Source: Hydractinia symbiolongicarpus (Eukaryota; Cnidaria; Hydrozoa; Anthoathecata; Hydractiniidae). Taken from it: a stretch of DNA of 64,000 bases. The DNA lies in NCBI RefSeq assembly GCF_029227915.1, contig NC_079878.1:6696001-6760000 (forward strand), written 5' to 3'. Positions 1,810 through 64,000 of this stretch are shown here, in pieces. Positions within the stretch are counted from its first letter, which is position 1; each line of letters starts with the position of its first letter. The notes beneath the pieces were generated by a model that ran no database searches, was not told the DNA's origin, and saw only the letters and a program-made list of their open reading frames with translations. Made by a program: the position numbers and the translations under genes.

Positions 1810-1828
1810 GTCAACTTGACAAGTTGAC
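1810..1828. repeat. Perfect 19-nt palindrome
   Basis: GTCAACTTG and CAAGTTGAC flank a single central A, making a perfect inverted repeat with 9-bp arms, about 240 bp outside the array edge. It could extrude as a cruciform or bind a dimeric protein; no function is shown. GTCAACT also occurs within each unit (2183-2189 in unit 1). Confidence 0.75.
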
Positions 1829-2010
1829 AAATTATTTTATGAACTGAATATATTATTTACGTCCACAATAGACTGATTGAAGTAAAACAGAGGATGAAAC
1901 AAGAAATCAGGCAGATTAGAAGAAGTGGCAGTACAGTTCTAGATTAACCTTCTTAGTTTTTGACCTATCATAAAAACCTATCTAAATCCAGCAACAGTAG
2001 GTCCCAACGA

Positions 2011-2034
2011 CACTTGACACTTGCCACTTGCCAC
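2011..2034. repeat. Heptamer tandem repeat at the array edge
   Basis: CACTTGA, CACTTGC, CACTTGC and a partial CAC follow one another, about 3.4 copies of a 7-mer, ending 34 bp before the first repeat unit. It may mark slippage near the array boundary. Confidence 0.7.
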
Positions 2035-2073
2035 ATTTATAACATAAATATAGGCCGCTCAACACAGTCCCGT

Positions 2074-2077
2074 AAAA
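2074..2077 (-). terminator. Pol III oligo-T stop of tRNA-Ile(AAU)
   Basis: AAAA on the plus strand reads TTTT on the minus strand, immediately after discriminator A73. The 3' trailer would be only the terminal U residues. It recurs in every unit at +695 and no change was seen. Confidence 0.9.
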
Positions 2078-2151
2078 TGGCCAGTGTGGGGCTCGAACCC
2101 ACGACATTCGCGTTATTAGCACGACGCTCTAGCCGACTGAGCTAACCGGCC
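2078..2151 (-). tRNA. tRNA-Ile(AAU), unit 1; type copy
   Basis: This 74-nt gene reads isoleucine codons; A34 is expected to become inosine and read AUU, AUC and AUA. The acceptor stem GGCCGGT/ACTGGCC pairs fully with one G-U. The D stem is GCTC/GAGC, the anticodon stem TCGTG/CGCGA with one G-U, and the loop CTAATAA places AAT at 2115-2117. The T stem is GTGGG/CCCAC with loop TTCGAGC, and the discriminator is A73. The A box is at 2133-2144 (TAGCTCAGTCGG) and the B box at 2089-2099 (GGTTCGAGCCC). CCA is not encoded. The sequence closely resembles animal tRNA-Ile(AAU). An oligo-T stop abuts the 3' end. Confidence 0.98.
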
Positions 2152-2333
2152 GTGAACGCGTGGACACGGACTCACTTCCTAAGTCAACTCTAAGCAAAAT
2201 ACTTTTATTTTTTTACTCAAAACGTTACCGTCATATTTCTCACGCTTTGATACGAGTCCAAGCAATGCAAATAGCCGCAACCCGCTCGAAAGAGGAGTCA
2301 TGTTAGGCCAACTTTAAACGGACATTCCCTGAA
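2152..2333. promoter_or_regulatory. Spacer 1: 5' of Ile(AAU), 3' of Thr(UGU), 182 bp
   Basis: It holds the upstream region of Ile(AAU), including the T-rich tract (2203-2214) and CCGTCA at 2228-2233, 77-82 bp upstream of that gene. It also holds the Thr trailer, with TTTT on the minus strand at 2219-2222 and 2196-2199. Position 2163 is the most variable site of the array (G, A or C among units 1-21, A afterwards). No coding content is evident. Confidence 0.6.
2203..2214 (+). terminator. T-rich tract TTTTATTTTTTT upstream of Ile(AAU)
   Basis: The plus strand carries T4-A-T7 here. For plus-strand read-through from Ile(UAU) of the preceding unit it would be a strong fail-safe Pol III stop. On the minus strand it is an A-rich element 52-63 bp upstream of Ile(AAU), which could assist TFIIIB placement or exclude nucleosomes. 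The role is inferred. Units 84 and 85 carry G instead of T at 59899 and 60594, next to the end of the run. Confidence 0.5.
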
Positions 2334-2334
2334 A
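2331..2334 (-). terminator. Weak 3' stop of tRNA-Thr(UGU), TTTC
   Basis: On the minus strand the tRNA ends with discriminator T73 followed by TTC, so only three T residues are available. The next TTTT on this strand is at 2222-2219, about 110 nt downstream. Either Pol III stops at this short run or the Thr transcript has a long trailer. Confidence 0.5.
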
Positions 2335-2406
2335 GCCCTCGGAGAGATTTGAACTCTCGACCCCTGGTTTACAAGACCAGTGCTCTAACCCCTGAGCTAC
2401 GAAGGC
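2334..2406 (-). tRNA. tRNA-Thr(UGU), unit 1; type copy
   Basis: This 73-nt gene reads ACA (and by wobble other ACN) threonine codons. The acceptor stem is GCCTTCG/CGAGGGC with one U4-G69 wobble. The D stem is GCTC/GAGC, the anticodon stem CTGGT/ACCAG, and the loop CTTGTAA puts TGT at 2371-2373. The T stem is GAGAG/CTCTC with loop TTCAAAT. The discriminator is T73, as in animal tRNA-Thr. The A box is at 2389-2399 (TAGCTCAGGGG) and the B box at 2345-2355 (AGTTCAAATCT). The gene shares its strand with Ile(AAU) 182 bp downstream and diverges from Ile(UAU). Unlike its neighbours it has no TTTT directly downstream. Confidence 0.98.
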
Positions 2407-2555
2407 ACGCGATCCTTGCCAAATACGAAAAGTCGGTGCATCAGGCAAAACAGGCCAGTTGCAACGTGTACTTGCCATAAAGTGATACCGTCAATGCCCT
2501 ACTGGACCATGACTATTCTAATCACGGACCTCAGCTTTCCCGTTAACATCCACGG
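2407..2555. promoter_or_regulatory. Spacer 2: divergent spacer between Thr(UGU) and Ile(UAU), 149 bp
   Basis: The two genes are transcribed away from each other, so this is the shared upstream region of both. CCGTCA is at 2488-2493, 63-68 bp upstream of Ile(UAU) and 82-87 bp upstream of Thr. CCCGT (2539-2543) and ACGGG (2552-2556) form a small inverted repeat ending on the first base of Ile(UAU). No strong TATA box is apparent, and the internal A and B boxes should be the main promoters. Confidence 0.55.
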
Positions 2556-2648
2556 GCTCCAGTGGCGTAGTCGGTTAGCGCGTCGTACTTATAAGTCAGT
2601 ATCGACAAAGACATGCGAAGATCGGGAGTTCGAGCCTCCCCTGGAGCA
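2556..2648 (+). tRNA. tRNA-Ile(UAU) with 19-nt intron, unit 1; type copy
   Basis: This 93-nt gene (74 nt mature) is the minor isoacceptor that reads AUA. The acceptor stem is GCTCCAG/CTGGAGC, the D stem GCGT/GCGC, and the anticodon stem TCGTA/TGCGA, with the loop C-T-TAT-A-A interrupted by the intron after A37. The anticodon is at 2590-2592. The T stem is GGGAG/CTCCC with loop TTCGAGC, and the discriminator is A73. The A box is at 2563-2574 (TGGCGTAGTCGG) and the B box at 2627-2637 (AGTTCGAGCCT). Eukaryotic tRNA-Ile(UAU) genes typically carry an intron, and in yeast it is needed for pseudouridine in the anticodon. A Pol III stop follows 3 nt after the gene. Confidence 0.98.
2594..2612 (+). 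other. Intron of tRNA-Ile(UAU)
   Basis: Nineteen nucleotides lie between A37 (2593) and A38 (2613), the canonical position for introns removed by the tRNA splicing endonuclease. GTC (2595-2597) can pair with GAC (2610-2612), extending the anticodon-arm helix as such introns usually do. It recurs at +695 in every unit. The only change seen is A to G at 44305 in unit 61. Confidence 0.93.
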
Positions 2649-2651
2649 AGG

Positions 2652-2659
2652 TTTCTTTT
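2652..2659 (+). terminator. Pol III stop of tRNA-Ile(UAU), TTTCTTTT
   Basis: A T3-C-T4 run starts 4 nt after the last tRNA base. TTTT is the canonical Pol III stop and the preceding TTT strengthens it. It recurs in every unit and no change was seen. Confidence 0.9.
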
Positions 2660-2743
2660 CATGCGCCGTCAACACACGCCACAGCACGGGCAGATCACCA
2701 GTAAAATCTAGCAACGTGGCAGTGCACCCAGGTTGTTTTGATC

Positions 2744-2758
2744 CCGTCAACGTGACGG
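2744..2758. repeat. Inverted repeat CCGTCA-ACG-TGACGG
   Basis: Perfect 6-bp arms surround a 3-nt loop in every convergent spacer. The arms contain CGTCA/TGACG half-sites resembling CREB/ATF-type sites. Whether it is a protein site or a hairpin is not decided by sequence. Unit 86 changes the loop (G to A at 61827). Confidence 0.6.
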
Positions 2759-2763
2759 CAAAG

Positions 2764-3458
2764 CCCGTAAAATGGCCAGTGTGGGGCTCGAACCCACGAC
2801 ATTCGCGTTATTAGCACGACGCTCTAGCCGACTGAGCTAACCGGCCGTGAACGCGTGAACACGGACTCACTTCCTAAGTCAACTCTAAGCAAAATACTTT
2901 TATTTTTTTACTCAAAACGTTACCGTCATATTTCTCACGCTTTGATACGAGTCCAAGCAATGCAAATAGCCGCAACCCGCTCGAAAGAGGAGTCATGTTA
3001 GGCCAACTTTAAACGGACATTCCCTGAAAGCCCTCGGAGAGATTTGAACTCTCGACCCCTGGTTTACAAGACCAGTGCTCTAACCCCTGAGCTACGAAGG
3101 CACGCGATCCTTGCCAAATACGAAAAGTCGGTGCATCAGGCAAAACAGGCCAGTTGCAACGTGTACTTGCCATAAAGTGATACCGTCAATGCCCTACTGG
3201 ACCATGACTATTCTAATCACGGACCTCAGCTTTCCCGTTAACATCCACGGGCTCCAGTGGCGTAGTCGGTTAGCGCGTCGTACTTATAAGTCAGTATCGA
3301 CAAAGACATGCGAAGATCGGGAGTTCGAGCCTCCCCTGGAGCAAGGTTTCTTTTCATGCGCCGTCAACACACGCCACAGCACGGGCAGATCACCAGTAAA
3401 ATCTAGCAACGTGGCAGTGCACCCAGGTTGTTTTGATCCCGTCAACGTGACGGCAAAG
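2764..3458. tRNA. Unit 2 tRNA trio
   Basis: Ile(AAU) 2773-2846 minus; Thr(UGU) 3029-3101 minus; Ile(UAU) 3251-3343 plus. Consensus. Confidence 0.97.
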
Positions 3459-4153
3459 CCCGTAAAATGGCCAGTGTGGGGCTCGAACCCACGACATTCG
3501 CGTTATTAGCACGACGCTCTAGCCGACTGAGCTAACCGGCCGTGAACGCGTGGACACGGACTCACTTCCTAAGTCAACTCTAAGCAAAATACTTTTATTT
3601 TTTTACTCAAAACGTTACCGTCATATTTCTCACGCTTTGATACGAGTCCAAGCAATGCAAATAGCCGCAACCCGCTCGAAAGAGGAGTCATGTTAGGCCA
3701 ACTTTAAACGGACATTCCCTGAAAGCCCTCGGAGAGATTTGAACTCTCGACCCCTGGTTTACAAGACCAGTGCTCTAACCCCTGAGCTACGAAGGCACGC
3801 GATCCTTGCCAAATACGAAAAGTCGGTGCATCAGGCAAAACAGGCCAGTTGCAACGTGTACTTGCCATAAAGTGATACCGTCAATGCCCTACTGGACCAT
3901 GACTATTCTAATCACGGACCTCAGCTTTCCCGTTAACATCCACGGGCTCCAGTGGCGTAGTCGGTTAGCGCGTCGTACTTATAAGTCAGTATCGACAAAG
4001 ACATGCGAAGATCGGGAGTTCGAGGCTCCCCTGGAGCAAGGTTTCTTTTCATGCGCCGTCAACACACGCCACAGCACGGGCAGATCACCAGTAAAATCTA
4101 GCAACGTGGCAGTGCACCCAGGTTGTTTTGATCCCGTCAACGTGACGGCAAAG
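3459..4153. tRNA. Unit 3 tRNA trio
   Basis: Ile(AAU) 3468-3541 minus; Thr(UGU) 3724-3796 minus; Ile(UAU) 3946-4038 plus. G at 3553 (spacer 1); C60 to G in Ile(UAU) at 4025. Confidence 0.97.
3946..4038 (+). tRNA. tRNA-Ile(UAU), unit 3, T-loop C60 to G
   Basis: Position 4025 is G instead of C, changing the last T-loop residue (60), which is unpaired. The B box reads AGTTCGAGGCT instead of AGTTCGAGCCT. The effect is probably mild on folding and uncertain on TFIIIC binding. Confidence 0.9.
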
Positions 4154-4848
4154 CCCGTAAAATGGCCAGTGTGGGGCTCGAACCCACGACATTCGCGTTA
4201 TTAGCACGACGCTCTAGCCGACTGAGCTAACCGGCCGTGAACGCGTGAACACGGACTCACTTCCTAAGTCAACTCTAAGCAAAATACTTTTATTTTTTTA
4301 CTCAAAACGTTACCGTCATATTTCTCACGCTTTGATACGAGTCCAAGCAATGCAAATAGCCGCAACCCGCTCGAAAGAGGAGTCATGTTAGGCCAACTTT
4401 AAACGGACATTCCCTGAAAGCCCTCGGAGAGATTTGAACTCTCGACCCCTGGTTTACAAGACCAGTGCTCTAACCCCTGAGCTACGAAGGCACGCGATCC
4501 TTGCCAAATACGAAAAGTCGGTGCATCAGGCAAAACAGGCCAGTTGCAACGTGTACTTGCCATAAAGTGATACCGTCAATGCCCTACTGGACCATGACTA
4601 TTCTAATCACGGACCTCAGCTTTCCCGTTAACATCCACGGGCTCCAGTGGCGTAGTCGGTTAGCGCGTCGTACTTATAAGTCAGTATCGACAAAGACATG
4701 CGAAGATCGGGAGTTCGAGCCTCCCCTGGAGCAAGGTTTCTTTTCATGCGCCGTCAACACACGCCACAGCACGGGCAGATCACCAGTAAAATCTAGCAAC
4801 GTGGCAGTGCACCCAGGTTGTTTTGATCCCGTCAACGTGACGGCAAAG
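4154..4848. tRNA. Unit 4 tRNA trio
   Basis: Ile(AAU) 4163-4236 minus; Thr(UGU) 4419-4491 minus; Ile(UAU) 4641-4733 plus. Consensus. Confidence 0.97.
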
Positions 4849-5543
4849 CCCGTAAAATGGCCAGTGTGGGGCTCGAACCCACGACATTCGCGTTATTAGC
4901 ACGACGCTCTAGCCGACTGAGCTAACCGGCCGTGAACGCGTGGACACGGACTCACTTCCTAAGTCAACTCTAAGCAAAATACTTTTATTTTTTTACTCAA
5001 AACGTTACCGTCATATTTCTCACGCTTTGATACGAGTCCAAGCAATGCAAATAGCCGCAACCCGCTCGAAAGAGGAGTCATGTTAGGCCAACTTTAAACG
5101 GACATTCCCTGAAAGCCCTCGGAGAGATTTGAACTCTCGACCCCTGGTTTACAAGACCAGTGCTCTAACCCCTGAGCTACGAAGGCACGCGATCCTTGCC
5201 AAATACGAAAAGTCGGTGCATCAGGCAAAACAGGCCAGTTGCAACGTGTACTTGCCATAAAGTGATACCGTCAATGCCCTACTGGACCATGACTATTCTA
5301 ATCACGGACCTCAGCTTTCCCGTTAACGTCCACGGGCTCCAGTGGCGTAGTCGGTTAGCGCGTCGTACTTATAAGTCAGTATCGACAAAGACATGCGAAG
5401 ATCGGGAGTTCGAGCCTCCCCTGGAGCAAGGTTTCTTTTCATGCGCCGTCAACACACGCCACAGCACGGGCAGATCACCAGTAAAATCTAGCAACGTGGC
5501 AGTGCACCCAGGTTGTTTTGATCCCGTCAACGTGACGGCAAAG
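4849..5543. tRNA. Unit 5 tRNA trio
   Basis: Ile(AAU) 4858-4931 minus; Thr(UGU) 5114-5186 minus; Ile(UAU) 5336-5428 plus. G at 4943 (spacer 1) and G at 5328 (spacer 2). Confidence 0.97.
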
Positions 5544-6238
5544 CCCGTAAAATGGCCAGTGTGGGGCTCGAACCCACGACATTCGCGTTATTAGCACGAC
5601 GCTCTAGCCGACTGAGCTAACCGGCCGTGAACGCGTGAACACGGACTCACTTCCTAAGTCAACTCTAAGCAAAATACTTTTATTTTTTTACTCAAAACGT
5701 TACCGTCATATTTCTCACGCTTTGATACGAGTCCAAGCAATGCAAATAGCCGCAACCCGCTCGAAAGAGGAGTCATGTTAGGCCAACTTTAAACGGACAT
5801 TCCCTGAAAGCCCTCGGAGAGATTTGAACTCTCGACCCCTGGTTTACAAGACCAGTGCTCTAACCCCTGAGCTACGAAGGCACGCGATCCTTGCCAAATA
5901 CGAAAAGTCGGTGCATCAGGCAAAACAGGCCAGTTGCAACGTGTACTTGCCATAAAGTGATACCGTCAATGCCCTACTGGACCATGACTATTCTAATCAC
6001 GGACCTCAGCTTTCCCGTTAACATCCACGGGCTCCAGTGGCGTAGTCGGTTAGCGCGTCGTACTTATAAGTCAGTATCGACAAAGACATGCGAAGATCGG
6101 GAGTTCGAGCCTCCCCTGGAGCAAGGTTTCTTTTCATGCGCCGTCAACACACGCCACAGCACGGGCAGATCACCAGTAAAATCTAGCAACGTGGCAGTGC
6201 ACCCAGGTTGTTTTGATCCCGTCAACGTGACGGCAAAG
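5544..6238. tRNA. Unit 6 tRNA trio
   Basis: Ile(AAU) 5553-5626 minus; Thr(UGU) 5809-5881 minus; Ile(UAU) 6031-6123 plus. Consensus. Confidence 0.97.
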
Positions 6239-6933
6239 CCCGTAAAATGGCCAGTGTGGGGCTCGAACCCACGACATTCGCGTTATTAGCACGACGCTCT
6301 AGCCGACTGAGCTAACCGGCCGTGAACGCGTGAACACGGACTCACTTCCTAAGTCAACTCTAAGCAAAATACTTTTATTTTTTTACTCAAAACGTTACCG
6401 TCATATTTCTCACGCTTTGATACGAGTCCAAGCAATGCAAATAGCCGCAACCCGCTCGAAAGAGGAGTCATGTTAGGCCAACTTTAAACGGACATTCCCT
6501 GAAAGCCCTCGGAGAGATTTGAACTCTCGACCCCTGGTTTACAAGACCAGTGCTCTAACCCCTGAGCTACGAAGGCACGCGATCCTTGCCAAATACGAAA
6601 AGTCGGTGCATCAGGCAAAACAGGCCAGTTGCAACGTGTACTTGCCATAAAGTGATACCGTCAATGCCCTACTGGACCATGACTATTCTAATCACGGACC
6701 TCAGCTTTCCCGTTAACGTCCACGGGCTCCAGTGGCGTAGTCGGTTAGCGCGTCGTACTTATAAGTCAGTATCGACAAAGACATGCGAAGATCGGGAGTT
6801 CGAGCCTCCCCTGGAGCAAGGTTTCTTTTCATGCGCCGTCAACACACGCCACAGCACGGGCAGATCACCAGTAAAATCTAGCAACGTGGCAGTGCACCCA
6901 GGTTGTTTTGATCCCGTCAACGTGACGGCAAAG
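6239..6933. tRNA. Unit 7 tRNA trio
   Basis: Ile(AAU) 6248-6321 minus; Thr(UGU) 6504-6576 minus; Ile(UAU) 6726-6818 plus. G at 6718 (spacer 2). Confidence 0.97.
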
Positions 6934-7628
6934 CCCGTAAAATGGCCAGTGTGGGGCTCGAACCCACGACATTCGCGTTATTAGCACGACGCTCTAGCCG
7001 ACTGAGCTAACCGGCCGTGAACGCGTGAACACGGACTCACTTCCTAAGTCAACTCTAAGCAAAATACTTTTATTTTTTTACTCAAAACGTTACCGTCATA
7101 TTTCTCACGCTTTGATACGAGTCCAAGCAATGCAAATAGCCGCAACCCGCTCGAAAGAGGAGTCATGTTAGGCCAACTTTAAACGGACATTCCCTGAAAG
7201 CCCTCGGAGAGATTTGAACTCTCGACCCCTGGTTTACAAGACCAGTGCTCTAACCCCTGAGCTACGAAGGCACGCGATCCTTGCCAAATACGAAAAGTCG
7301 GTGCATCAGGCAAAACAGGCCAGTTGCAACGTGTACTTGCCATAAAGTGATACCGTCAATGCCCTACTGGACCATGACTATTCTAATCACGGACCTCAGC
7401 TTTCCCGTTAACATCCACGGGCTCCAGTGGCGTAGTCGGTTAGCGCGTCGTACTTATAAGTCAGTATCGACAAAGACATGCGAAGATCGGGAGTTCGAGC
7501 CTCCCCTGGAGCAAGGTTTCTTTTCATGCGCCGTCAACACACGCCACAGCACGGGCAGATCACCAGTAAAATCTAGCAACGTGGCAGTGCACCCAGGTTG
7601 TTTTGATCCCGTCAACGTGACGGCAAAG
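6934..7628. tRNA. Unit 8 tRNA trio
   Basis: Ile(AAU) 6943-7016 minus; Thr(UGU) 7199-7271 minus; Ile(UAU) 7421-7513 plus. Consensus. Confidence 0.97.
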
Positions 7629-8323
7629 CCCGTAAAATGGCCAGTGTGGGGCTCGAACCCACGACATTCGCGTTATTAGCACGACGCTCTAGCCGACTGA
7701 GCTAACCGGCCGTGAACGCGTGAACACGGACTCACTTCCTAAGTCAACTCTAAGCAAAATACTTTTATTTTTTTACTCAAAACGTTACCGTCATATTTCT
7801 CACGCTTTGATACGAGTCCAAGCAATGCAAATAGCCGCAACCCGCTCGAAAGAGGAGTCATGTTAGGCCAACTTTAAACGGACATTCCCTGAAAGCCCTC
7901 GGAGAGATTTGAACTCTCGACCCCTGGTGTACAAGACCAGTGCTCTAACCCCTGAGCTACGAAGGCACGCGATCCTTGCCAAATACGAAAAGTCGGTGCA
8001 TCAGGCAAAACAGGCCAGTTGCAACGTGTACTTGCCATAAAGTGATACCGTCAATGCCCTACTGGACCATGACTATTCTAATCACGGACCTCAGCTTTCC
8101 CGTTAACATCCACGGGCTCCAGTGGCGTAGTCGGTTAGCGCGTCGTACTTATAAGTCAGTATCGACAAAGACATGCGAAGATCGGGAGTTCGAGCCTCCC
8201 CTGGAGCAAGGTTTCTTTTCATGCGCCGTCAACACACGCCACAGCACGGGCAGATCACCAGTAAAATCTAGCAACGTGGCAGTGCACCCAGGTTGTTTTG
8301 ATCCCGTCAACGTGACGGCAAAG
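7629..8323. tRNA. Unit 9 tRNA trio
   Basis: Ile(AAU) 7638-7711 minus; Thr(UGU) 7894-7966 minus; Ile(UAU) 8116-8208 plus. Thr A38 to C (7929). Confidence 0.97.
7894..7966 (-). tRNA. tRNA-Thr(UGU), unit 9, anticodon-loop A38 to C
   Basis: Plus-strand 7929 is G instead of T, which changes loop position 38 from A to C. The anticodon and all stems are intact, so this copy could still work. Confidence 0.9.
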
Positions 8324-9018
8324 CCCGTAAAATGGCCAGTGTGGGGCTCGAACCCACGACATTCGCGTTATTAGCACGACGCTCTAGCCGACTGAGCTAA
8401 CCGGCCGTGAACGCGTGAACACGGACTCACTTCCTAAGTCAACTCTAAGCAAAATACTTTTATTTTTTTACTCAAAACGTTACCGTCATATTTCTCACGC
8501 TTTGATACGAGTCCAAGCAATGCAAATAGCCGCAACCCGCTCGAAAGAGGAGTCATGTTAGGCCAACTTTAAACGGACATTCCCTGAAAGCCCTCGGAGA
8601 GATTTGAACTCTCGACCCCTGGTTTACAAGACCAGTGCTCTAACCCCTGAGCTACGAAGGCACGCGATCCTTGCCAAATACGAAAAGTCGGTGCATCAGG
8701 CAAAACAGGCCAGTTGCAACGTGTACTTGCCATAAAGTGATACCGTCAATGCCCTACTGGACCATGACTATTCTAATCACGGACCTCAGCTTTCCCGTTA
8801 ACGTCCACGGGCTCCAGTGGCGTAGTCGGTTAGCGCGTCGTACTTATAAGTCAGTATCGACAAAGACATGCGAAGATCGGGAGTTCGAGCCTCCCCTGGA
8901 GCAAGGTTTCTTTTCATGCGCCGTCAACACACGCCACAGCACGGGCAGATCACCAGTAAAATCTAGCAACGTGGCAGTGCACCCAGGTTGTTTTGATCCC
9001 GTCAACGTGACGGCAAAG
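8324..9018. tRNA. Unit 10 tRNA trio
   Basis: Ile(AAU) 8333-8406 minus; Thr(UGU) 8589-8661 minus; Ile(UAU) 8811-8903 plus. G at 8803 (spacer 2). Confidence 0.97.
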
Positions 9019-9713
9019 CCCGTAAAATGGCCAGTGTGGGGCTCGAACCCACGACATTCGCGTTATTAGCACGACGCTCTAGCCGACTGAGCTAACCGGC
9101 CGTGAACGCGTGGACACGGACTCACTTCCTAAGTCAACTCTAAGCAAAATACTTTTATTTTTTTACTCAAAACGTTACCGTCATATTTCTCACGCTTTGA
9201 TACGAGTCCAAGCAATGCAAATAGCCGCAACCCGCTCGAAAGAGGAGTCATGTTAGGCCAACTTTAAACGGACATTCCCTGAAAGCCCTCGGAGAGATTT
9301 GAACTCTCGACCCCTGGTTTACAAGACCAGTGCTCTAACCCCTGAGCTACGAAGGCACGCGATCCTTGCCAAATACGAAAAGTCGGTGCATCAGGCAAAA
9401 CAGGCCAGTTGCAACGTGTACTTGCCATAAAGTGATACCGTCAATGCCCTACTGGACCATGACTATTCTAATCACGGACCTCAGCTTTCCCGTTAACATC
9501 CACGGGCTCCAGTGGCGTAGTCGGTTAGCGCGTCGTACTTATAAGTCAGTATCGACAAAGACATGCGAAGATCGGGAGTTCGAGCCTCCCCTGGAGCAAG
9601 GTTTCTTTTCATGCGCCGTCAACACACGCCACAGCACGGGCAGATCACCAGTAAAATCTAGCAACGTGGCAGTGCACCCAGGTTGTTTTGATCCCGTCAA
9701 CGTGACGGCAAAG
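9019..9713. tRNA. Unit 11 tRNA trio
   Basis: Ile(AAU) 9028-9101 minus; Thr(UGU) 9284-9356 minus; Ile(UAU) 9506-9598 plus. G at 9113 (spacer 1). Confidence 0.97.
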
Positions 9714-10408
9714 CCCGTAAAATGGCCAGTGTGGGGCTCGAACCCACGACATTCGCGTAATTAGCACGACGCTCTAGCCGACTGAGCTAACCGGCCGTGA
9801 ACGCGTGCACACGGACTCACTTCCTAAGTCAACTCTAAGCAAAATACTTTTATTTTTTTACTCAAAACGTTACCGTCATATTTCTCACGCTTTGATACGA
9901 GTCCAAGCAATGCAAATAGCCGCAACCCGCTCGAAAGAGGAGTCATGTTAGGCCAACTTTAAACGGACATTCCCTGAAAGCCCTCGGAGAGATTTGAACT
10001 CTCGACCCCTGGTTTACAAGACCAGTGCTCTAACCCCTGAGCTACGAAGGCACGCGATCCTTGCCAAATACGAAAAGTCGGTGCATCAGGCAAAACAGGC
10101 CAGTTGCAACGTGTACTTGCCATAAAGTGATACCGTCAATGCCCTACTGGACCATGACTATTCTAATCACGGACCTCAGCTTTCCCGTTAACATCCACGG
10201 GCTCCAGTGGCGTAGTCGGTTAGCGCGTCGTACTTATAAGTCAGTATCGACAAAGACATGCGAAGATCGGGAGTTCGAGCCTCCCCTGGAGCAAGGTTTC
10301 TTTTCATGCGCCGTCAACACACGCCACAGCACGGGCAGATCACCAGTAAAATCTAGCAACGTGGCAGTGCACCCAGGTTGTTTTGATCCCGTCAACGTGA
10401 CGGCAAAG
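9714..10408. tRNA. Unit 12 tRNA trio
   Basis: Ile(AAU) 9723-9796 minus; Thr(UGU) 9979-10051 minus; Ile(UAU) 10201-10293 plus. Ile(AAU) A37 to U (9759); unique C at 9808 (spacer 1). Confidence 0.97.
9723..9796 (-). tRNA. tRNA-Ile(AAU), unit 12, A37 to U
   Basis: Plus-strand 9759 is A instead of T, so the base 3' of the anticodon becomes U. A37 is normally t6A-modified in tRNAs reading A-starting codons, and a U there cannot carry it. The fold is intact, but decoding is probably impaired. The same change occurs in unit 16. Confidence 0.92.
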
Positions 10409-11103
10409 CCCGTAAAATGGCCAGTGTGGGGCTCGAACCCACGACATTCGCGTTATTAGCACGACGCTCTAGCCGACTGAGCTAACCGGCCGTGAACGCG
10501 TGAACACGGACTCACTTCCTAAGTCAACTCTAAGCAAAATACTTTTATTTTTTTACTCAAAACGTTACCGTCATATTTCTCACGCTTTGATACGAGTCCA
10601 AGCAATGCAAATAGCCGCAACCCGCTCGAAAGAGGAGTCATGCTAGGCCAACTTTAAACGGACATTCCCTGAAAGCCCTCGGAGAGATTTGAACTCTCGA
10701 CCCCTGGTTTACAAGACCAGTGCTCTAACCCCTGAGCTACGAAGGCACGCGATCCTTGCCAAATACGAAAAGTCGGTGCATCAGGCAAAACAGGCCAGTT
10801 GCAACGTGTACTTGCCATAAAGTGATACCGTCAATGCCCTACTGGACCATGACTATTCTAATCACGGACCTCAGCTTTCCCGTTAACATCCACGGGCTCC
10901 AGTGGCGTAGTCGGTTAGCGCGTCGTACTTATAAGTCAGTATCGACAAAGACATGCGAAGATCGGGAGTTTGAGCCTCCCCTGGAGCAAGGTTTCTTTTC
11001 ATGCGCCGTCAACACACGCCACAGCACGGGCAGATCACCAGTAAAATCTAGCAACGTGGCAGTGCACCCAGGTTGTTTTGATCCCGTCAACGTGACGGCA
11101 AAG
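10409..11103. tRNA. Unit 13 tRNA trio
   Basis: Ile(AAU) 10418-10491 minus; Thr(UGU) 10674-10746 minus; Ile(UAU) 10896-10988 plus. C at 10643 (spacer 1); Ile(UAU) C56 to U (10971). Confidence 0.97.
10896..10988 (+). tRNA. tRNA-Ile(UAU), unit 13, C56 to U
   Basis: Position 10971 is T instead of C. C56 is nearly invariant: it pairs with G19 at the elbow and is a key B-box base (TTCGA becomes TTTGA). This copy is likely weakened in transcription, folding or both. Confidence 0.9.
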
Positions 11104-54888: not shown

Positions 54889-55583
54889 CCCGTAAAATGG
54901 CCAGTGTGGGGCTCGAACCCACGACATTCGCGTTATTAGCACGACGCTCTAGCCGACTGAGCTAACCGGCCGTGAACGCGTGAACACGGACTCACTTCCT
55001 AAGTCAACTCTAAGCAAAATACTTTTATTTTTTTACTCAAAACGTTACCGTCATATTTCTCACGCTTTGATACGAGTCCAAGCAATGCAAATAGCCGCAA
55101 CCCGCTCGAAAGAGGAGTCATGTTAGGCCAACTTTAAACGGACATTCCCTGAAATGCCTCGGAGAGATTTGAACTCTCGACCCCTGGTTTACAAGACCAG
55201 TGCTCTAACCCCTGAGCTACGAAGGCACGCGATCCTTGCCAAATACGAAAAGTCGGTGCATCAGGCAAAACAGGCCAGTTGCAACGTGTACTTGCCATAA
55301 AGTGATACCGTCAATGCCCTACTGGACCATGACTATTCTAATCACGGACCTCAGCTTTCCCGTTAACATCCACGGGCTCCAGTGGCGTAGTCGGTTAGCG
55401 CGTCGTACTTATAAGTCAGTATCGACAAAGACATGCGAAGATCGGGAGTTCGAGCCTCCCCTGGAGCAAGGTTTCTTTTCATGCGCCGTCAACACACGCC
55501 ACAGCACGGGCAGATCACCAGTAAAATCTAGCAACGTGGCAGTGCACCCAGGTTGTTTTGATCCCGTCAACGTGACGGCAAAG
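54889..55583. tRNA. Unit 77 tRNA trio
   Basis: Ile(AAU) 54898-54971 minus; Thr(UGU) 55154-55226 minus; Ile(UAU) 55376-55468 plus. Thr C72 to A (55155) and G71 to C (55156). Confidence 0.97.
55154..55226 (-). tRNA. tRNA-Thr(UGU), unit 77, two terminal acceptor mismatches
   Basis: Plus-strand 55155 is T and 55156 is G, giving G1-A72 and C2-C71. Both outermost acceptor pairs are broken, making this a likely non-functional copy. It starts the uninterrupted run of C71 variants. Confidence 0.88.
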
Positions 55584-56278
55584 CCCGTAAAATGGCCAGT
55601 GTGGGGCTCGAACCCACGACATTCGCGTTATTAGCACGACGCTCTAGCCGACTGAGCTAACCGGCCGTGAACGCGTGAACACGGACTCACTTCCTAAGTC
55701 AACTCTAAGCAAAATACTTTTATTTTTTTACTCAAAACGTTACCGTCATATTTCTCACGCTTTGATACGAGTCCAAGCAATGCAAATAGCCGCAACCCGC
55801 TCGAAAGAGGAGTCATGTTAGGCCAACTTTAAACGGACATTCCCTGAAAGGCCTCGGAGAGATTTGAACTCTCGACCCCTGGTTTACAAGACCAGTGCTC
55901 TAACCCCTGAGCTACGAAGGCACGCGATCCTTGCCAAATGCGAAAAGTCGGTGCATCAGGCAAAACAGGCCAGTTGCAACGTGTACTTGCCATAAAGTGA
56001 TACCGTCAATGCCCTACTGGACCATGACTATTCTAATCACGGACCTCAGCTTTCCCGTTAACATCCACGGGCTCCAGTGGCGTAGTCGGTTAGCGCGTCG
56101 TACTTATAAGTCAGTATCGACAAAGACATGCGAAGATCGGGAGTTCGAGCCTCCCCTGGAGCAAGGTTTCTTTTCATGCGCCGTCAACACACGCCACAGC
56201 ACGGGCAGATCACCAGTAAAATCTAGCAACGTGGCAGTGCACCCAGGTTGTTTTGATCCCGTCAACGTGACGGCAAAG
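55584..56278. tRNA. Unit 78 tRNA trio
   Basis: Ile(AAU) 55593-55666 minus; Thr(UGU) 55849-55921 minus; Ile(UAU) 56071-56163 plus. Thr G71 to C (55851); G at 55940 (spacer 2), shared with unit 73. Confidence 0.97.
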
Positions 56279-56973
56279 CCCGTAAAATGGCCAGTGTGGG
56301 GCTCGAACCCACGACATTCGCGTTATTAGCACGACGCTCTAGCCGACTGAGCTAACCGGCCGTGAACGCGTGAACACGGACTCACTTCCTAAGTCAACTC
56401 TAAGCAAAATACTTTTATTTTTTTACTCAAAACGTTACCGTCATATTTCTCACGCTTTGATACGAGCCCAAGCAATGCAAATAGCCGCAACCCGCTCGAA
56501 AGAGGAGTCATGTTAGGCCAACTTTAAACGGACATTCCCTGAAAGGCCTCGGAGAGATTTGAACTCTCGACCCCTGGTTTACAAGACCAGTGCTCTAACC
56601 CCTGAGCTACGAAGGCACGCGATCCTTGCCAAATACGAAAAGTCGGTGCATCAGGCAAAACAGGCCAGTTGCAACGTGTACTTGCCATAAAGTGATACCG
56701 TCAATGCCCTACTGGACCATGACTATTCTAATCACGGACCTCAGCTTTCCCGTTAACATCCACGGGCTCCAGTGGCGTAGTCGGTTAGCGCGTCGTACTT
56801 ATAAGTCAGTATCGACAAAGACATGCGAAGATCGGGAGTTCGAGCCTCCCCTGGAGCAAGGTTTCTTTTCATGCGCCGTCAACACACGCCACAGCACGGG
56901 CAGATCACCAGTAAAATCTAGCAACGTGGCAGTGCACCCAGGTTGTTTTGATCCCGTCAACGTGACGGCAAAG
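56279..56973. tRNA. Unit 79 tRNA trio
   Basis: Ile(AAU) 56288-56361 minus; Thr(UGU) 56544-56616 minus; Ile(UAU) 56766-56858 plus. C at 56467 (spacer 1); Thr G71 to C (56546). Confidence 0.97.
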
Positions 56974-57668
56974 CCCGTAAAATGGCCAGTGTGGGGCTCG
57001 AACCCACGACATTCGCGTTATTAGCACGACGCTCTAGCCGACTGAGCTAACCGGCCGTGAACGCGTGAACACGGACTCACTTCCTAAGTCAACTCTAAGC
57101 AAAATACTTTTATTTTTTTACTCAAAACGTTACCGTCATATTTCTCACGCTTTGATACGAGTCCAAGCAATGCAAATAGCCGCAACCCGCTCGAAAGAGG
57201 AGTCATGTTAGGCCAACTTTAAACGGACATTCCCTGAAAGGCCTCGGAGAGATTTGAACTCTCGACCCCTGGTTTACAAGACCAGTGCTCTAACCCCTGA
57301 GCTACGAAGGCACGCGATCCTTGCCAAATACGAAAAGTCGGTGCATCAGGCAAAACAGGCCAGTTGCAACGTGTACTTGCCATAAAGTGATACCGTCAAT
57401 GCCCTACTGGACCATGACTATTCTAATCACGGACCTCAGCTTTCCCGTTAACATCCACGGGCTCCAGTGGCGTAGTCGGTTAGCGCGTCGTACTTATAAG
57501 TCAGTATCGACAAAGACATGCGAAGATCGGGAGTTCGAGCCTCCCCTGGAGCAAGGTTTCTTTTCATGCGCCGTCAACACACGCCACAGCACGGGCAGAT
57601 CACCAGTAAAATCTAGCAACGTGGCAGTGCACCCAGGTTGTTTTGATCCCGTCAACGTGACGGCAAAG
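56974..57668. tRNA. Unit 80 tRNA trio
   Basis: Ile(AAU) 56983-57056 minus; Thr(UGU) 57239-57311 minus; Ile(UAU) 57461-57553 plus. Thr G71 to C (57241). Confidence 0.97.
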
Positions 57669-58363
57669 CCCGTAAAATGGCCAGTGTGGGGCTCGAACCC
57701 ACGACATTCGCGTTATTAGCACGACGCTCTAGCCGACTGAGCTAACCGGCCGTGAACGCGTGAACACGGACTCACTTCCTAAGTCAACTCTAAGCAAAAT
57801 ACTTTTATTTTTTTACTCAAAACGTTACCGTCATATTTCTCACGCTTTGATACGAGTCCAAGCAATGCAAATAGCCGCAACCCGCTCGAAAGAGGAGTCA
57901 TGTTAGGCCAACTTTAAACGGACATTCCCTGAAAGGCCTCGGAGAGATTTGAACTCTCGACCCCTGGTTTACAAGACCAGTGCTCTAACCCCTGAGCTAC
58001 GAAGGCACGCGATCCTTGCCAAATACGAAAAGTCGGTGCATCAGGCAAAACAGGCCAGTTGCAACGTGTACTTGCCATAAAGTGATACCGTCAATGCCCT
58101 ACTGGACCATGACTATTCTAATCACGGACCTCAGCTTTCCCGTTAACATCCACGGGCTCCAGTGGCGTAGTCGGTTAGCGCGTCGTACTTATAAGTCAGT
58201 ATCGACAAAGACATGCGAAGATCGGGAGTTCGAGCCTCCCCTGGAGCAAGGTTTCTTTTCATGCGCCGTCAACACACGCCACAGCACGGGCAGATCACCA
58301 GTAAAATCTAGCAACGTGGCAGTGCACCCAGGTTGTTTTGATCCCGTCAACGTGACGGCAAAG
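57669..58363. tRNA. Unit 81 tRNA trio
   Basis: Ile(AAU) 57678-57751 minus; Thr(UGU) 57934-58006 minus; Ile(UAU) 58156-58248 plus. Thr G71 to C (57936). Confidence 0.97.
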
Positions 58364-59058
58364 CCCGTAAAATGGCCAGTGTGGGGCTCGAACCCACGAC
58401 ATTCGCGTTATTAGCACGACGCTCTAGCCGACTGAGCTAACCGGCCGTGAACGCGTGAACACGGACTCACTTCCTAAGTCAACTCTAAGCAAAATACTTT
58501 TATTTTTTTACTCAAAACGTTACCGTCATATTTCTCACGCTTTGATACGAGTCCAAGCAATGCAAATAGCCGCAACCCGCTCGAAAGAGGAGTCATGTTA
58601 GGCCAACTTTAAACGGACATTCCCTGAAAGGCCTCGGAGAGATTTGAACTCTCGACCCCTGGTTTACAAGACCAGTGCTCTAACCCCTGAGCTACGAAGG
58701 CACGCGATCCTTGCCAAATACGAAAAGTCGGTGCATCAGGCAAAACAGGCCAGTTGCAACGTGTACTTGCCATAAAGTGATACCGTCAATGCCCTACTGG
58801 ACCATGACTATTCTAATCACGGACCTCAGCTTTCCCGTTAACATCCACGGGCTCCAGTGGCGTAGTCGGTTAGCGCGTCGTACTTATAAGTCAGTATCGA
58901 CAAAGACATGCGAAGATCGGGAGTTCGAGCCTCCCCTGGAGCAAGGTTTCTTTTCATGCGCCGTCAACACACGCCACAGCACGGGCAGATCACCAGTAAA
59001 ATCTAGCAACGTGGCAGTGCACCCAGGTTGTTTTGATCCCGTCAACGTGACGGCAAAG
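58364..59058. tRNA. Unit 82 tRNA trio
   Basis: Ile(AAU) 58373-58446 minus; Thr(UGU) 58629-58701 minus; Ile(UAU) 58851-58943 plus. Thr G71 to C (58631). Confidence 0.97.
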
Positions 59059-59753
59059 CCCGTAAAATGGCCAGTGTGGGGCTCGAACCCACGACATTCG
59101 CGTTATTAGCACGACGCTCTAGCCGACTGAGCTAACCGGCCGTGAACGCGTGAACACGGACTCACTTCCTAAGTCAACTCTAAGCAAAATACTTTTATTT
59201 TTTTACTCAAAACGTTACCGTCATATTTCTCACGCTTTGATACGAGTCCAAGCAATGCAAATAGCCGCAACCCGCTCGAAAGAGGAGTCATGTTAGGCCA
59301 ACTTTAAACGGACATTCCCTGAAAGGCCTCGGAGAGATTTGAACTCTCGACCCCTGGTTTACAAGACCAGTGCTCTAACCCCTGAGCTACGAAGGCACGC
59401 GATCCTTGCCAAATACGAAAAGTCGGTGCATCAGGCAAAACAGGCCAGTTGCAACGTGTACTTGCCATAAAGTGATACCGTCAATGCCCTACTGGACCAT
59501 GACTATTCTAATCACGGACCTCAGCTTTCCCGTTAACATCCACGGGCTCCAGTGGCGTAGTCGGTTAGCGCGTCGTACTTATAAGTCAGTATCGACAAAG
59601 ACATGCGAAGATCGGGAGTTCGAGCCTCCCCTGGAGCAAGGTTTCTTTTCATGCGCCGTCAACACACGCCACAGCACGGGCAGATCACCAGTAAAATCTA
59701 GCAACGTGGCAGTGCACCCAGGTTGTTTTGATCCCGTCAACGTGACGGCAAAG
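59059..59753. tRNA. Unit 83 tRNA trio
   Basis: Ile(AAU) 59068-59141 minus; Thr(UGU) 59324-59396 minus; Ile(UAU) 59546-59638 plus. Thr G71 to C (59326), the last unit of the run. Confidence 0.97.
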
Positions 59754-60448
59754 CCCGTAAAATGGCCAGTGTGGGGCTCGAACCCACGACATTCGCGTTA
59801 TTAGCACGACGCTCTAGCCGACTGAGCTAACCGGCCGTGAACGCGTGAACACGGACTCACTTCCTAAGTCAACTCTAAGCAAAATACTTTTATTTTTTGA
59901 CTCAAAACGTTACCGTCATATTTCTCACGCTTTGATACGAGTCCAAGCAATGCAAATAGCCGCAACCCGCTCGAAAGAGGAGTCATGTTAGGCCAACTTT
60001 AAACGGACATTCCCTGAAAGCCCTCGGAGAGATTTGAACTCTCGACCCCTGGATTACAAGACCAGTGCTCTAACCCCTGAGCTACGAAGGCACGCGATCC
60101 TTGCCAAATACGAAAAGTCGGTGCATCAGGCAAAACAGGCCAGTTGCAACGTGTACTTGCCATAAAGTGATACCGTCAATGCCCTACTGGACCATGACTA
60201 TTCTAATCACGGACCTCAGCTTTCCCGTTAACATCCACGGGCTCCAGTGGCGTAGTCGGTTAGCGCGTCGTACTTATAAGTCAGTATCGACAAAGACATG
60301 CGAAGATCGGGAGTTCGAGCCTCCCCTGGAGCAAGGTTTCTTTTCATGCGCCGTCAACACACGCCACAGCACGGGCAGATTACCAGTAAAATCTAGCAAC
60401 GTGGCAGTGCACCCAGGTTGTTTTGATCCCGTCAACGTGACGGCAAAG
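59754..60448. tRNA. Unit 84 tRNA trio
   Basis: Ile(AAU) 59763-59836 minus; Thr(UGU) 60019-60091 minus; Ile(UAU) 60241-60333 plus. G at 59899 (spacer 1); Thr A39 to U (60053), giving a U31-U39 mismatch in the anticodon stem; T at 60381 (spacer 3). Confidence 0.97.
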
Positions 60449-61143
60449 CCCGTAAAATGGCCAGTGTGGGGCTCGAACCCACGACATTCGCGTTATTAGC
60501 ACGACGCTCTAGCCGACTGAGCTAACCGGCCGTGAACGCGTGAACACGGACTCACTTCCTAAGTCAACTCTAAGCAAAATACTTTTATTTTTTGACTCAA
60601 AACGTTACCGTCATATTTCTCACGCTTTGATACGAGTCCAAGCAATGCAAATAGCCGCAACCCGCTCGAAAGAGGAGTCATGTTAGGCCAAATTTAAACG
60701 GACATTCCCTGAAAGCCCTCGGAGAGATTTGAACTCTCGACCCCTGGTTTACAAGACCAGTGCTCTAACCCCTGAGCTACGAAGGCACGCGATCCTTGCC
60801 AAATACGAAAAGTCGGTGCATCAGGCAAAACAGGCCAGTTGCAACGTGTACTTGCCATAAAGTGATACCGTCAATGCCCTACTGGACCATGACTATTCTA
60901 ATCACGGACCTCAGCTTTCCCGTTAACATCCACAGGCTCCAGTGGCGTAGTCGGTTAGCGCGTCGTACTTATAAGTCAGTATCGACAAAGACATGCGAAG
61001 ATCGGGAGTTCGAGCCTCCCCTGGAGCAAGGTTTCTTTTCATGCGCCGTCAACACACGCCACAGCACGGGCAGATCACCAGTAAAATCTAGCAACGTGGC
61101 AGTGCACCCAGGTTGTTTTGATCCCGTCAACGTGACGGCAAAG
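60449..61143. tRNA. Unit 85 tRNA trio
   Basis: Ile(AAU) 60458-60531 minus; Thr(UGU) 60714-60786 minus; Ile(UAU) 60936-61028 plus. G at 60594 and A at 60692 (spacer 1); A at 60934, two bases before Ile(UAU). Confidence 0.97.
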
Positions 61144-61408
61144 CCCGTAAAATGGCCAGTGTGGGGCTCGAACCCACGACATTCGCGTTATTAGCACGAC
61201 GCTCTAGCCGACTGAGCTAACCGGCCGTGAACGCGTGAACACGGACTCACTTCCTAAGTCAACTCTAAGCAAAATACTTTTATTTTTTTACTCAAAACGT
61301 TACCGTCATATTTCTCACGCTTTGATACGAGTCCAAGCAATGCAAATAGCCGCAACCCGCTCGAAAGAGGAGTCATGTTAGGCCAACTTTAAACGGACAT
61401 TCCCTGAA

Positions 61409-61481
61409 AGCCCACGGAGAGATTTGAACTCTCGATCCCTTGTTTACAAGACCAGTGCTCTAACCCCTGAGCTACGAAGGC
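61409..61481 (-). pseudogene. Probable tRNA-Thr(UGU) pseudogene, unit 86
   Basis: There are three changes: 61414 (A68 to U, giving U5-U68 in the acceptor stem), 61436 (G46 to A in the variable loop) and 61441 (C41 to A, giving G29-A41 in the anticodon stem). The UGU anticodon remains. With two broken pairs and a changed tertiary-contact base, this is the most degraded gene in the window. Confidence 0.75.
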
Positions 61482-61630
61482 ACGCGATCCTTGCCAAATA
61501 CGAAAAGTCGGTGCATCAGGCAAAACAGGCCAGTTGCAACGTGTACTTGCCATAAAGTGATACCGTCAATGCCCTACTGGACCATGACTATTCTAATCAC
61601 GGACCTCAGCTTTCCCGTTAACATCCACGG

Positions 61631-61723
61631 GCTCCAGTGGCGTAGTCGGTTATCGCGTCGTACTTATAAGTCAGTATCGACAAAGACATGCGAAGATCGG
61701 GAGTTCGAGCCTCCCCTGGAGCA
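61631..61723 (+). tRNA. tRNA-Ile(UAU), unit 86, D-stem U13-U22
   Basis: Position 61653 is T instead of G, so residue 22 becomes U and the U13-G22 wobble becomes a U-U mismatch at the inner end of the D stem. The effect is uncertain, possibly mild. It is shared with unit 87. Confidence 0.88.
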
Positions 61724-61838
61724 AGGTTTCTTTTCATGCGCCGTCAACACACGCCACAGCACGGGCAGATCACCAGTAAAATCTAGCAACGTGGCAGTGC
61801 ACCCAGGTTGTTTTGATCCCGTCAACATGACGGCAAAG

Positions 61839-62533
61839 CCCGTAAAATGGCCAGTGTGGGGCTCGAACCCACGACATTCGCGTTATTAGCACGACGCTCT
61901 AGCCGACTGAGCTAACCGGCCGTGAACGCGTGAACACGGACTCACTTCCTATGTCAACTCTAAGCAAAATACTTTTATTTTTTTACTCAAAACGTTACCG
62001 TCATATTTCTCACGCTTTGATACGAGTCCAAGCAATGCAAATAGCCGCAACCCGCTCGAAAGAGGAGTCATGTTAGGCCAACTTTAAACGGACATTCCCT
62101 GAAAGCCCTCGGAGAGATTTGAACTCTCGACCCCTGGTTTACAAGACCAGTGCTCTAACCCCTGAGCTACGAAGGCACGCGATCCTTGCCAAATACGAAA
62201 AGTCGGTGCATCAGGCAAAACAGGCCAGTTGCAACGTGTACTTGCCATAAAGTGATACCGTCAATGCCCTACTGGACCATGACTATTCTAATCACGGACC
62301 TCAGCTTTCCCGTTAACATCCACGGGCTCCAGTGGCGTAGTCGGTTATCGCGTCGTACTTATAAGTCAGTATCGACAAAGACATGCGAAGATCGGGAGTT
62401 CGAGCCTCCCCTGGAGCAAGGTTTCTTTTCATGCGCCGTCAACACACGCCACAGCACGGGCAGATCACCAGTAAAATCTAGCAACGTGGCAGTGCACCCA
62501 GGTTGTTTTGATCCCGTCAACGTGACGGCAAAG
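61839..62533. tRNA. Unit 87 tRNA trio
   Basis: Ile(AAU) 61848-61921 minus; Thr(UGU) 62104-62176 minus; Ile(UAU) 62326-62418 plus with G22 to U (62348), as unit 86. T at 61952 (spacer 1). Confidence 0.96.
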
Positions 62534-63228
62534 CCCGTAAAATGGCCAGTGTGGGGCTCGAACCCACGACATTCGCGTTATTAGCACGACGCTCTAGCCG
62601 ACTGAGCTAACCGGCCGTGAACGCGTGAACACGGACTCACTTCCTATGTCAACTCTAAGCAAAATACTTTTATTTTTTTACTTAAAACGTTACCGTCATA
62701 TTTCTCACGCTTTGATACGAGTCCAAGCAATGCAAATAGCCGCAACCCGCTCGAAAGAGGAGTCATGTTAGGCCAACTTTAAACGGACATTCCCTGAAAG
62801 CCCTCGGAGAGATTTGAACTCTCGACCCCTGGTTTACAAGACCAGTGCTCTAACCCCTGAGCTACGAAGGCACGCGATCCTTGCCAAATACGAAAAGTCG
62901 GTGCATCAGGCAAAACAGGCCAGTTGCAACGTGTACTTGCCATAAAGTGATACCGTCAATGCCCTACTGGACCATGACTATTCTAATCACGGACCTCAGC
63001 TTTCCCGTTAACATCCACGGGCTCCAGTGGCGTAGTCGGTTAGCGCGTCGTACTTATAAGTCAGTATCGACAAAGACATGCGAAGATCGGGAGTTCGAGC
63101 CTCCCCTGGAGCAAGGTTTCTTTTCATGCGCCGTCAACACACGCCACAGCACGGGCAGATCACCAGTAAAATCTAGCAACGTGGCAGTGCACCCAGGTTG
63201 TTTTGATCCCGTCAACGTGACGGCAAAG
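62534..63228. tRNA. Unit 88 tRNA trio
   Basis: Ile(AAU) 62543-62616 minus; Thr(UGU) 62799-62871 minus; Ile(UAU) 63021-63113 plus. T at 62647 (as unit 87) and T at 62683, both spacer 1. Confidence 0.97.
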
Positions 63229-63923
63229 CCCGTAAAATGGCCAGTGTGGGGCTCGAACCCACGACATTCGCGTTATTAGCACGACGCTCTAGCCGACTGA
63301 GCTAACCGGCCGTGAACGCGTGAACACGGACTCACTTCCTAAGTCAACTCTAAGCAAAATACTTTTATTTTTTTACTCAAAACGTTACCGTCATATTTCT
63401 CACGCTTTGATAGGAGTCCAAGCAATGCAAATAGCCGCAACCCGCTCGAAAGAGGAGTCATGTTAGGCCAACTTTAAACGGACATTCCCTGAAAGCCCAC
63501 GGAGAGATTTGAACTCTCGACCCCTGGTTTACAAGACCAGTGCTCTAACCCCTGAGCTACGAAGGCACGCGATCCTTGCCAAATACGAAAAGTCGGTGCA
63601 TCAGGCAAAACAGGCCAGTTGCAACGTGTACTTGCCATAAAGTGATACCGTCAATGCCCTACTGGACCATGACTATTCTAATCACGGACCTCAGCTTTCC
63701 CGTTAACATCCACGGGCTCCAGTGGCGTAGTCGGTTAGCGCGTCGTACTTATAAGTCAGTATCGACAAAGACATGCGAAGATCGGGAGTTCGAGCCTCCC
63801 CTGGAGCAAGGTTTCTTTTCATGCGCCGTCAACACACGCCACAGCACGGGCAGATCACCAGTAAAATCTAGCAACGTGGCAGTGCACCCAGGTTGTTTTG
63901 ATCCCGTCAACGTGACGGCAAAG
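63229..63923. tRNA. Unit 89 tRNA trio
   Basis: Ile(AAU) 63238-63311 minus; Thr(UGU) 63494-63566 minus with A68 to U (63499; U5-U68 mismatch, as unit 86); Ile(UAU) 63716-63808 plus. G at 63413 (spacer 1). Confidence 0.96.
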
Positions 63924-63932
63924 CCCGTAAAA

Positions 63933-64000
63933 TGGCCAGTGTGGGGCTCGAACCCACGACATTCGCGTTATTAGCACGACGCTCTAGCCGACTGAGCTAA
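63933..64000 (-). tRNA. tRNA-Ile(AAU), unit 90, cut by window edge
   Basis: The 3' 68 nt of the gene are present and match consensus, including the anticodon. The first six nucleotides of the acceptor stem lie beyond 64000, so the array continues to the right. Confidence 0.95.

What the first reader, a model, noticed from the sequence alone, without database searches (positions are those of the whole stretch)
2069..64000. Giant tandem tRNA array: 267 complete tRNA genes in 62 kb
Ninety copies of a compact three-tRNA unit give one of the densest tRNA loci one could expect. Large tDNA arrays exist in a few lineages (Xenopus, Entamoeba), but this Ile(AAU)/Thr(UGU)/Ile(UAU) trio on a 695-bp period is not one I recognise. 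The array also leaves the window, so the full copy number is higher.
Basis: partly seen in the sequence, partly recalled or inferred. Interest (0 to 1): 0.88.

Follow-up and report, generated by a model that had tools for sequence, protein, structure and literature searches.

The report
Tandem array of 267 tRNA genes
A stretch of eukaryotic DNA repeats a 695-base block carrying three transfer-RNA genes at least 89 times, almost without change; such tRNA gene arrays are already known from several distant lineages, so this is a large, clean example rather than a new kind of thing.

Summary
From 2069 to the window's end there are 89 complete 695-bp units plus 77 bp of a 90th, with no indels. In eukaryotic intron mode ARAGORN finds 267 tRNA genes: 89 Ile(AAU), 89 Thr(UGU) and 89 Ile(UAU), the last with a 19-nt intron. 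Units differ from the consensus at 79 of 61,855 positions. Shared variants lie close together: 99 of 102 shared-variant pairs are within 20 units, 40.8 expected under shuffling. Runs of 3-7 units recur at lags of 4, 5 and 12 units, with private differences. This favours a real array kept uniform by local unequal exchange over an assembly expansion, but no reads were available. Variants are as dense in the tRNA genes as in the spacers (16 of 43; 14.8 expected), so single copies look dispensable. Expression was not testable. Tandem tRNA arrays are published for Phytophthora infestans (trimeric units included; copy numbers supported by read depth), Hydractinia, Nematostella, Entamoeba, Ceratodon and Arabidopsis. 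The organism was not identified; the genome search did not complete. I call it a new member of a known kind.

The parts
2069..63923 (.). 89 complete head-to-tail 695-bp units, no indels; unit k starts at 2069+695(k-1)
   Evidence: per-unit comparison with consensus; 79 mismatches of 61,855
63924..64000 (.). first 77 bp of unit 90; array leaves the window
   Evidence: Rfam tRNA cut at its 5' end at 63933-64000
2078..2151 (-). tRNA-Ile(AAU), unit 1; T4 directly 3' of the gene, no encoded CCA (same place in every unit, +695 each)
   Evidence: 89 copies; Rfam 63.7 bits; terminator in the consensus
2334..2406 (-). tRNA-Thr(UGU), unit 1; no T4 until 111 nt downstream (only TT follows the gene, TTT with its last base)
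   Evidence: 89 copies; Rfam 70.2 bits; terminator scan of the consensus
2556..2648 (+). tRNA-Ile(UAU), unit 1, with a 19-nt intron one base 3' of the anticodon; TTTCTTTT within 11 nt of the gene's end
   Evidence: 89 copies, intron 19 nt; Rfam 55.4 bits
2407..2555 (.). 149-bp divergent spacer between the 5' ends of Thr(UGU) and Ile(UAU), unit 1; no TATA in the 80 nt upstream of either gene (TATT at -19 and -42)
2649..2772 (.). 124-bp convergent spacer between the 3' ends of Ile(UAU) of unit 1 and Ile(AAU) of unit 2, with a T4 for each gene
59754..63923 (.). units 84-89: most diverged stretch, mean 2.83 changes per unit against 0.43-1.04 in the other three stretches
   Evidence: 0 of 20,000 permutations reached it; the stretch was chosen after seeing the data
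1..2068 (.). left flank, outside the array: 36% GC, CpG observed/expected 0.61, no tRNA called, no Pfam match above cut-off for the ORFs tried, no homology to the unit beyond 9-13 nt

Best explanation
This is a genuine tandem array of RNA polymerase III tRNA genes in a eukaryotic nuclear genome. One ancestral 695-bp segment with three intact tRNA genes (both isoleucine decoders and one threonine decoder) was amplified. It is kept nearly uniform by local unequal exchange and/or gene conversion reaching about 1-20 units. Shown: anatomy, near-identity, locality of shared variants, recurring runs of units. Inferred: that it is physically this long, that at least some units are transcribed and feed the ordinary Ile/Thr tRNA pool, and that copies are so redundant that single ones drift.
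For: 267 genes recognised with the expected anticodons, and the three consensus genes have normal cloverleaves. T4 close behind two of three gene types and no encoded CCA. 99 of 102 shared-variant pairs within 20 units, shuffled mean 40.8, 0 of 1000 shuffles reach it; lags 1, 2, 4, 5 reached by 0 and lag 3 by 2 of 1000. Recurring runs with private differences: units 24-30 and 36-42 (lag 12), 68-70 and 73-75 (lag 5), 12-14 and 16-18 (lag 4). Variant density in genes equals that in spacers: 16 of 43 against 14.8 expected, binomial p 0.75. CpG observed/expected 1.14 in the unit, 0.61 in the flank: no CpG decay of the kind long germline methylation leaves, though a young array would look the same. 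In P. [quoted passage not shown]
Against: No reads, RNA data or relatives were available. The Thr gene has no T4 until +111 and holds 9 of the 43 distinct changes (4.5 expected, p 0.04, not corrected for testing several regions), one of which breaks an acceptor-stem pair in 9 of 89 copies, so some Thr copies may be poor genes. In P. infestans di- and trimeric arrays were much more diverse than monomeric ones, unlike here. Lags 8 and 12 alone do not exceed shuffling (143 and 140 of 1000). Copy number cannot be verified, and the P. infestans paper warns that tRNA counts differ strongly between assemblies of one species (Peronospora effusa 7,391 against 270).
Confidence: 0.65

Rival explanations
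1. Mostly silent passenger array: tRNA genes carried along by satellite-like unequal exchange, repressed in most tissues, with a chromatin or boundary role or none.
For: No detectable purifying selection on single copies. The Arabidopsis SYY cluster is silenced in most tissues (passages). The Entamoeba authors thought many copies are probably inactive (passages). In P. infestans copy number and codon use correlate only modestly, R 0.41 (section read).
Against: The consensus genes are intact. CpG observed/expected of 1.14 argues against long germline methylation. No selection on single copies is also expected of active but redundant genes.
Confidence: 0.25
2. Assembly expansion: a shorter array inflated by the assembler.
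For: Exact repeats reach 5,613 bp, so short or noisy reads could be misplaced; no depth was available; tRNA counts vary strongly between published assemblies of one species.
Against: 38 distinct unit sequences; sharing of variants falls with distance and recurring runs differ by private changes; no indel in 89 units despite a T7 run in each. In P. infestans, high tRNA numbers agreed with read depth; that is another genome.
Confidence: 0.1

Closest known systems
Phytophthora infestans tRNA arrays (PMC9584435; section on tRNA genes read whole)
   Same: Long tandem arrays of short units (513 nt, 271 copies, Cys; 850-nt dimer, Val-Ser; Thr-Trp-Ser trimer); [quoted passage not shown] tRNA numbers agree with Illumina depth.
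   Different: Different tRNA trio; its di- and trimeric arrays are much more diverse, whereas this trimer is 99.87% uniform. Whether this window is from an oomycete was not testable.
Hydractinia and Nematostella tandem ncRNA arrays (PMC11067881, passages; PMC2888827, passages)
   Same: Evenly spaced arrays of tens to hundreds of nearly identical copies with near-identical spacers of several hundred nt or more; in Hydractinia tRNAs for all 20 amino acids.
   Different: Unit contents are in supplements I could not open; no sequence comparison was possible.
Entamoeba tRNA arrays (PMC2652664, passages)
   Same: Units with 1-5 tRNA types, homogenised, with point differences between copies.
   Different: E. 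histolytica and E. dispar units carry short tandem repeats between genes; none found here.
Arabidopsis SYY cluster (PMC12308677, passages)
   Same: Tandem triplet of tRNA genes, 27 Tyr-Tyr-Ser units (PMC12652284, passages).
   Different: Fewer copies; methylated; Tyr and Ser.
Ceratodon purpureus double and triple arrays (PMC12652284, passages)
   Same: Units of two or three tRNA genes repeated up to 37 times, including Val-Glu-Phe.
   Different: Fewer copies; in the 50 plants surveyed 86.87% of intron-bearing tRNA genes are Met or Tyr, here the intron is in Ile(UAU).
Human 1q23.3 tRNA VNTR (PMC4041453, abstract and passages)
   Same: Homogeneous CpG-rich tandem tRNA repeat.
   Different: 7.3-kb unit, 9-43 copies, CTCF site; tRNA genes under 6% of a unit against 34.5% here.

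Membership tests
Tandem tRNA gene array of a nuclear genome | Head-to-tail units each holding the same tRNA genes | tested here: met
   89 units; 267 genes, 89 of each type
Tandem tRNA gene array of a nuclear genome | Near-identity of units including spacers (concerted evolution) | tested here: met
   79 of 61,855 positions differ; 99 of 102 shared-variant pairs within 20 units
Tandem tRNA gene array of a nuclear genome | Eukaryotic-type tRNA genes: intron beside the anticodon, no encoded CCA, oligo-T terminator | tested here: inconclusive
   Intron and no CCA in the consensus; T4 near Ile(AAU) and Ile(UAU), but for Thr not until +111
Tandem tRNA gene array of a nuclear genome | Copy number confirmed independently of the assembly | not testable with these tools
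   no reads; the genome search did not complete
Tandem tRNA gene array of a nuclear genome | Transcription by Pol III | not testable with these tools
   no RNA or ChIP data
Entamoeba histolytica-type tRNA array | Short tandem repeats between the genes | tested here: not met
   TRF (periods up to 500, score 50 or more) reports one repeat in the window, at 703-746 in the flank
SINE or tRNA-derived satellite | Degenerate tRNA-like part without a working cloverleaf | tested here: not met
   three distinct intact consensus cloverleaves per unit, one with an intron

The most novel reading that the evidence does not exclude
The unit joins a full isoleucine decoding set (AAU for AUU/AUC, UAU for AUA) with Thr(UGU) at fixed 1:1:1 dosage. 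The array could be a selected, stage- or tissue-specific supply, active in the germ line (CpG-rich), for stocking eggs or making Ile/Thr-rich proteins. This would be comparable to what is hypothesised for the tRNA genes of zebrafish chromosome 4 and reported for the Arabidopsis SYY cluster in root-tip cells.
Probability: 0.12. Interest if true: 0.6.

Novelty: new member of a known kind. Interest (0 to 1): 0.38.

Why it matters
It is an unusually clean record of concerted evolution: 89 ordered units with 40 variable sites show runs of units copied over distances of 4-12 units and sharing that fades beyond about 20 units (14 kb). It also shows tRNA gene copies that vary as much as their spacers, which bears on the open question of why some genomes keep hundreds of identical tRNA genes. 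The surprise is limited because several lineages already have such arrays.

Tried and rejected
Species identification. Exact stretches of the tRNAs gave 0 matches in viral contigs and genome contigs; little was expected, as these are viral and bacterial/archaeal collections. Searching the papers for tRNA stretches hit one paper, PMC7698123, whose table lists a 20-nt 5' fragment of human Ile(AAT) identical to the first 20 nt of the window's Ile(AAU) (passage); a weak animal-like hint only. That human Ile(UAU) carries a similar short intron and a GCUCCAGUGGCG start is recalled, not tested.

Flank. 8 ORFs (of 33 listed; two of the 8 lie in the array) against Pfam gave 3 weak matches, none above the curated cut-off, so no gene or transposon was recognised. 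Idea that the flank keeps a decayed unit: no support, matches of 9-13 nt only.

Extra RNA genes in the unit: in 1-3500 Rfam at E up to 1 gave, besides tRNA, only S-element and Plastid-ycf2, both far below gathering scores.

Dead Ile(UAU) in unit 13 (T-loop C to U): the bacterial mode missed it, Rfam scores it 52.8 bits against 55.4 and the intron mode finds it; it may be weakened, not shown dead.

Lag 12 among shared variants: not significant alone (140 of 1000 shuffles); that match rests on three changes in the same order and a 5,613-bp exact repeat, noticed after the fact. Excess of changes in Thr: p 0.04 uncorrected, so not claimed. Xenopus tDNA arrays are recalled; the library gave only a mention of methylated tRNA gene repeats in Xenopus and mouse embryos, and two further searches listed no dedicated paper.
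Full report
What was checked. The window was read from 1 to 5000, scanned for tRNAs and cut into 695-bp units from 2069. There are 89 complete units and a 77-bp stub, and no unit needs a gap. 35 of 89 equal the consensus and 38 distinct sequences occur. The find_trnas tool gave 266 genes; ARAGORN with introns and the standard code gave 267: 89 Ile(AAU), 89 Thr(UGU), 89 Ile(UAU) with a 19-nt intron. Rfam agrees in the three stretches scanned.

Anatomy of the unit. On the minus strand lie Ile(AAU), 74 nt, and Thr(UGU), 73 nt; on the plus strand lies Ile(UAU), 93 nt with its intron. Thr and Ile(UAU) start back to back across 149 bp; Ile(UAU) and the next Ile(AAU) end face to face across 124 bp, each with its own T4. 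tRNA genes fill 240 of 695 bp (34.5%). Behind Thr there is no T4 for 111 nt, so it may terminate poorly; this is inference. The intron sits one base 3' of the anticodon, which PMC4090602 calls the canonical place (abstract); in yeast the Ile(UAU) intron is needed for pseudouridylation of the anticodon (same paper, passages).

Is the array real? Units differ from the consensus at 79 of 61,855 positions, mean pairwise difference 0.25%. 43 distinct changes fall on 40 sites. Changes shared by several units (16 of 43) are local: the mean gap between carriers is 4.6 units against 25.1 in 5000 shuffles, none as low; 99 of 102 shared pairs are within 20 units, 40.8 expected, 0 of 1000 shuffles. Runs recur in order: units 24-30 and 36-42 share three changes, while unit 29 has a private one; 68-70 and 73-75 share three changes with one private; 12-14 and 16-18 share three with private ones. 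This is what repeated unequal exchange leaves; a plain assembly expansion would copy private changes too (inference). The longest exact repeat is 5,613 bp, so accurate reads longer than that could order the array. Against this: no reads were seen, lags 8 and 12 alone are not beyond shuffling (143 and 140 of 1000), and the runs were picked after looking. The last six units are the most diverged (2.83 changes each, 0 of 20,000 permutations, stretch chosen after looking); in P. infestans monomeric arrays variants often sit near one edge, so the right end may be near. That is a guess.

Selection. 16 of 43 distinct changes lie in tRNA genes, 14.8 expected from length (p 0.75). By gene: Ile(AAU) 2 (4.6 expected), Thr 9 (4.5), Ile(UAU) 5 (5.8). 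Consensus-identical copies: 86, 73 and 83 of 89. In Thr, nine units carry C at position 71 opposite C2, and others change 72 or 68. The C71 copies score 63.0 bits in Rfam against 70.2, and the lowest Thr in the scanned stretches, unit 86 with three changes, 57.7. So I see no purifying selection on single copies; with 43 changes the test has little power for a weak effect.

CpG. The unit has CpG observed/expected 1.14, the 2,068-bp flank 0.61. The array has not lost CpG as long-methylated DNA does; either it is not methylated in the germ line or it is young. The flank is a short comparison.

How it most likely works. A segment with three tRNA genes was amplified, and unequal exchange or conversion over 1-20 units spreads and removes variants. 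tRNA genes carry their Pol III promoter inside the gene (established knowledge; I ran no motif scan), so each unit could be transcribed by itself; how many are is unknown. Nothing beyond redundant supply is needed to explain what is seen, but a mostly silent array is a serious rival.

Compared with what is known. In P. infestans 7,519 tRNA genes lie on the chromosomes, about 64% in tandem arrays of one gene and 36% in dimeric or trimeric arrays, with numbers agreeing with read depth (section read whole; passages elsewhere). Hydractinia has arrays for tRNAs of all 20 amino acids, and arrays were also seen in Nematostella but not in other cnidarian genomes then available (passages); in Nematostella 89% of more than 17,000 tDNAs are clustered (passages). 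Entamoeba, plants, Arabidopsis, human, the tRNA-rich zebrafish chromosome 4 and the cat flea with over 4,000 tRNA genes were read as passages. The exact trio was not seen in nine paper searches, of which I saw listings; supplements and most subscription papers were out of reach, so it may already be described. The organism stays unknown. An animal is my leading guess, from the intron-bearing Ile(UAU) (recalled as animal-like) and a 20-nt match to a human Ile(AAT) fragment; both are weak.

Verdict. Well supported as real from the sequence, large and clean; a new member of a known kind.

Noticed in passing
window 153-212 and 226-285: A 60-nt direct repeat (95% identical, 73-bp spacing) in the left flank, outside the array.
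   Followed up: no
window 1246-1260 and 1314-1328: A 15-nt inverted repeat (93%) with 53 nt between the arms in the flank; could be a small element end or chance.
   Followed up: no
window 2219-2333 (same place in each unit): Downstream of tRNA-Thr(UGU) the first T4 comes after 111 nt, upstream of Ile(AAU); a long trailer or read-through is possible.
   Followed up: partly
window 48634-59753, units 68, 73 and 77-83: One change (G71 to C in tRNA-Thr, breaking the 2-71 pair) is in 9 units, 7 of them in a row: a damaged gene version being spread by homogenisation.
   Followed up: partly
window 59754-63923, units 84-89: Variants pile up in the last six complete units of the window, perhaps because the right end of the array is near.
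   Followed up: partly
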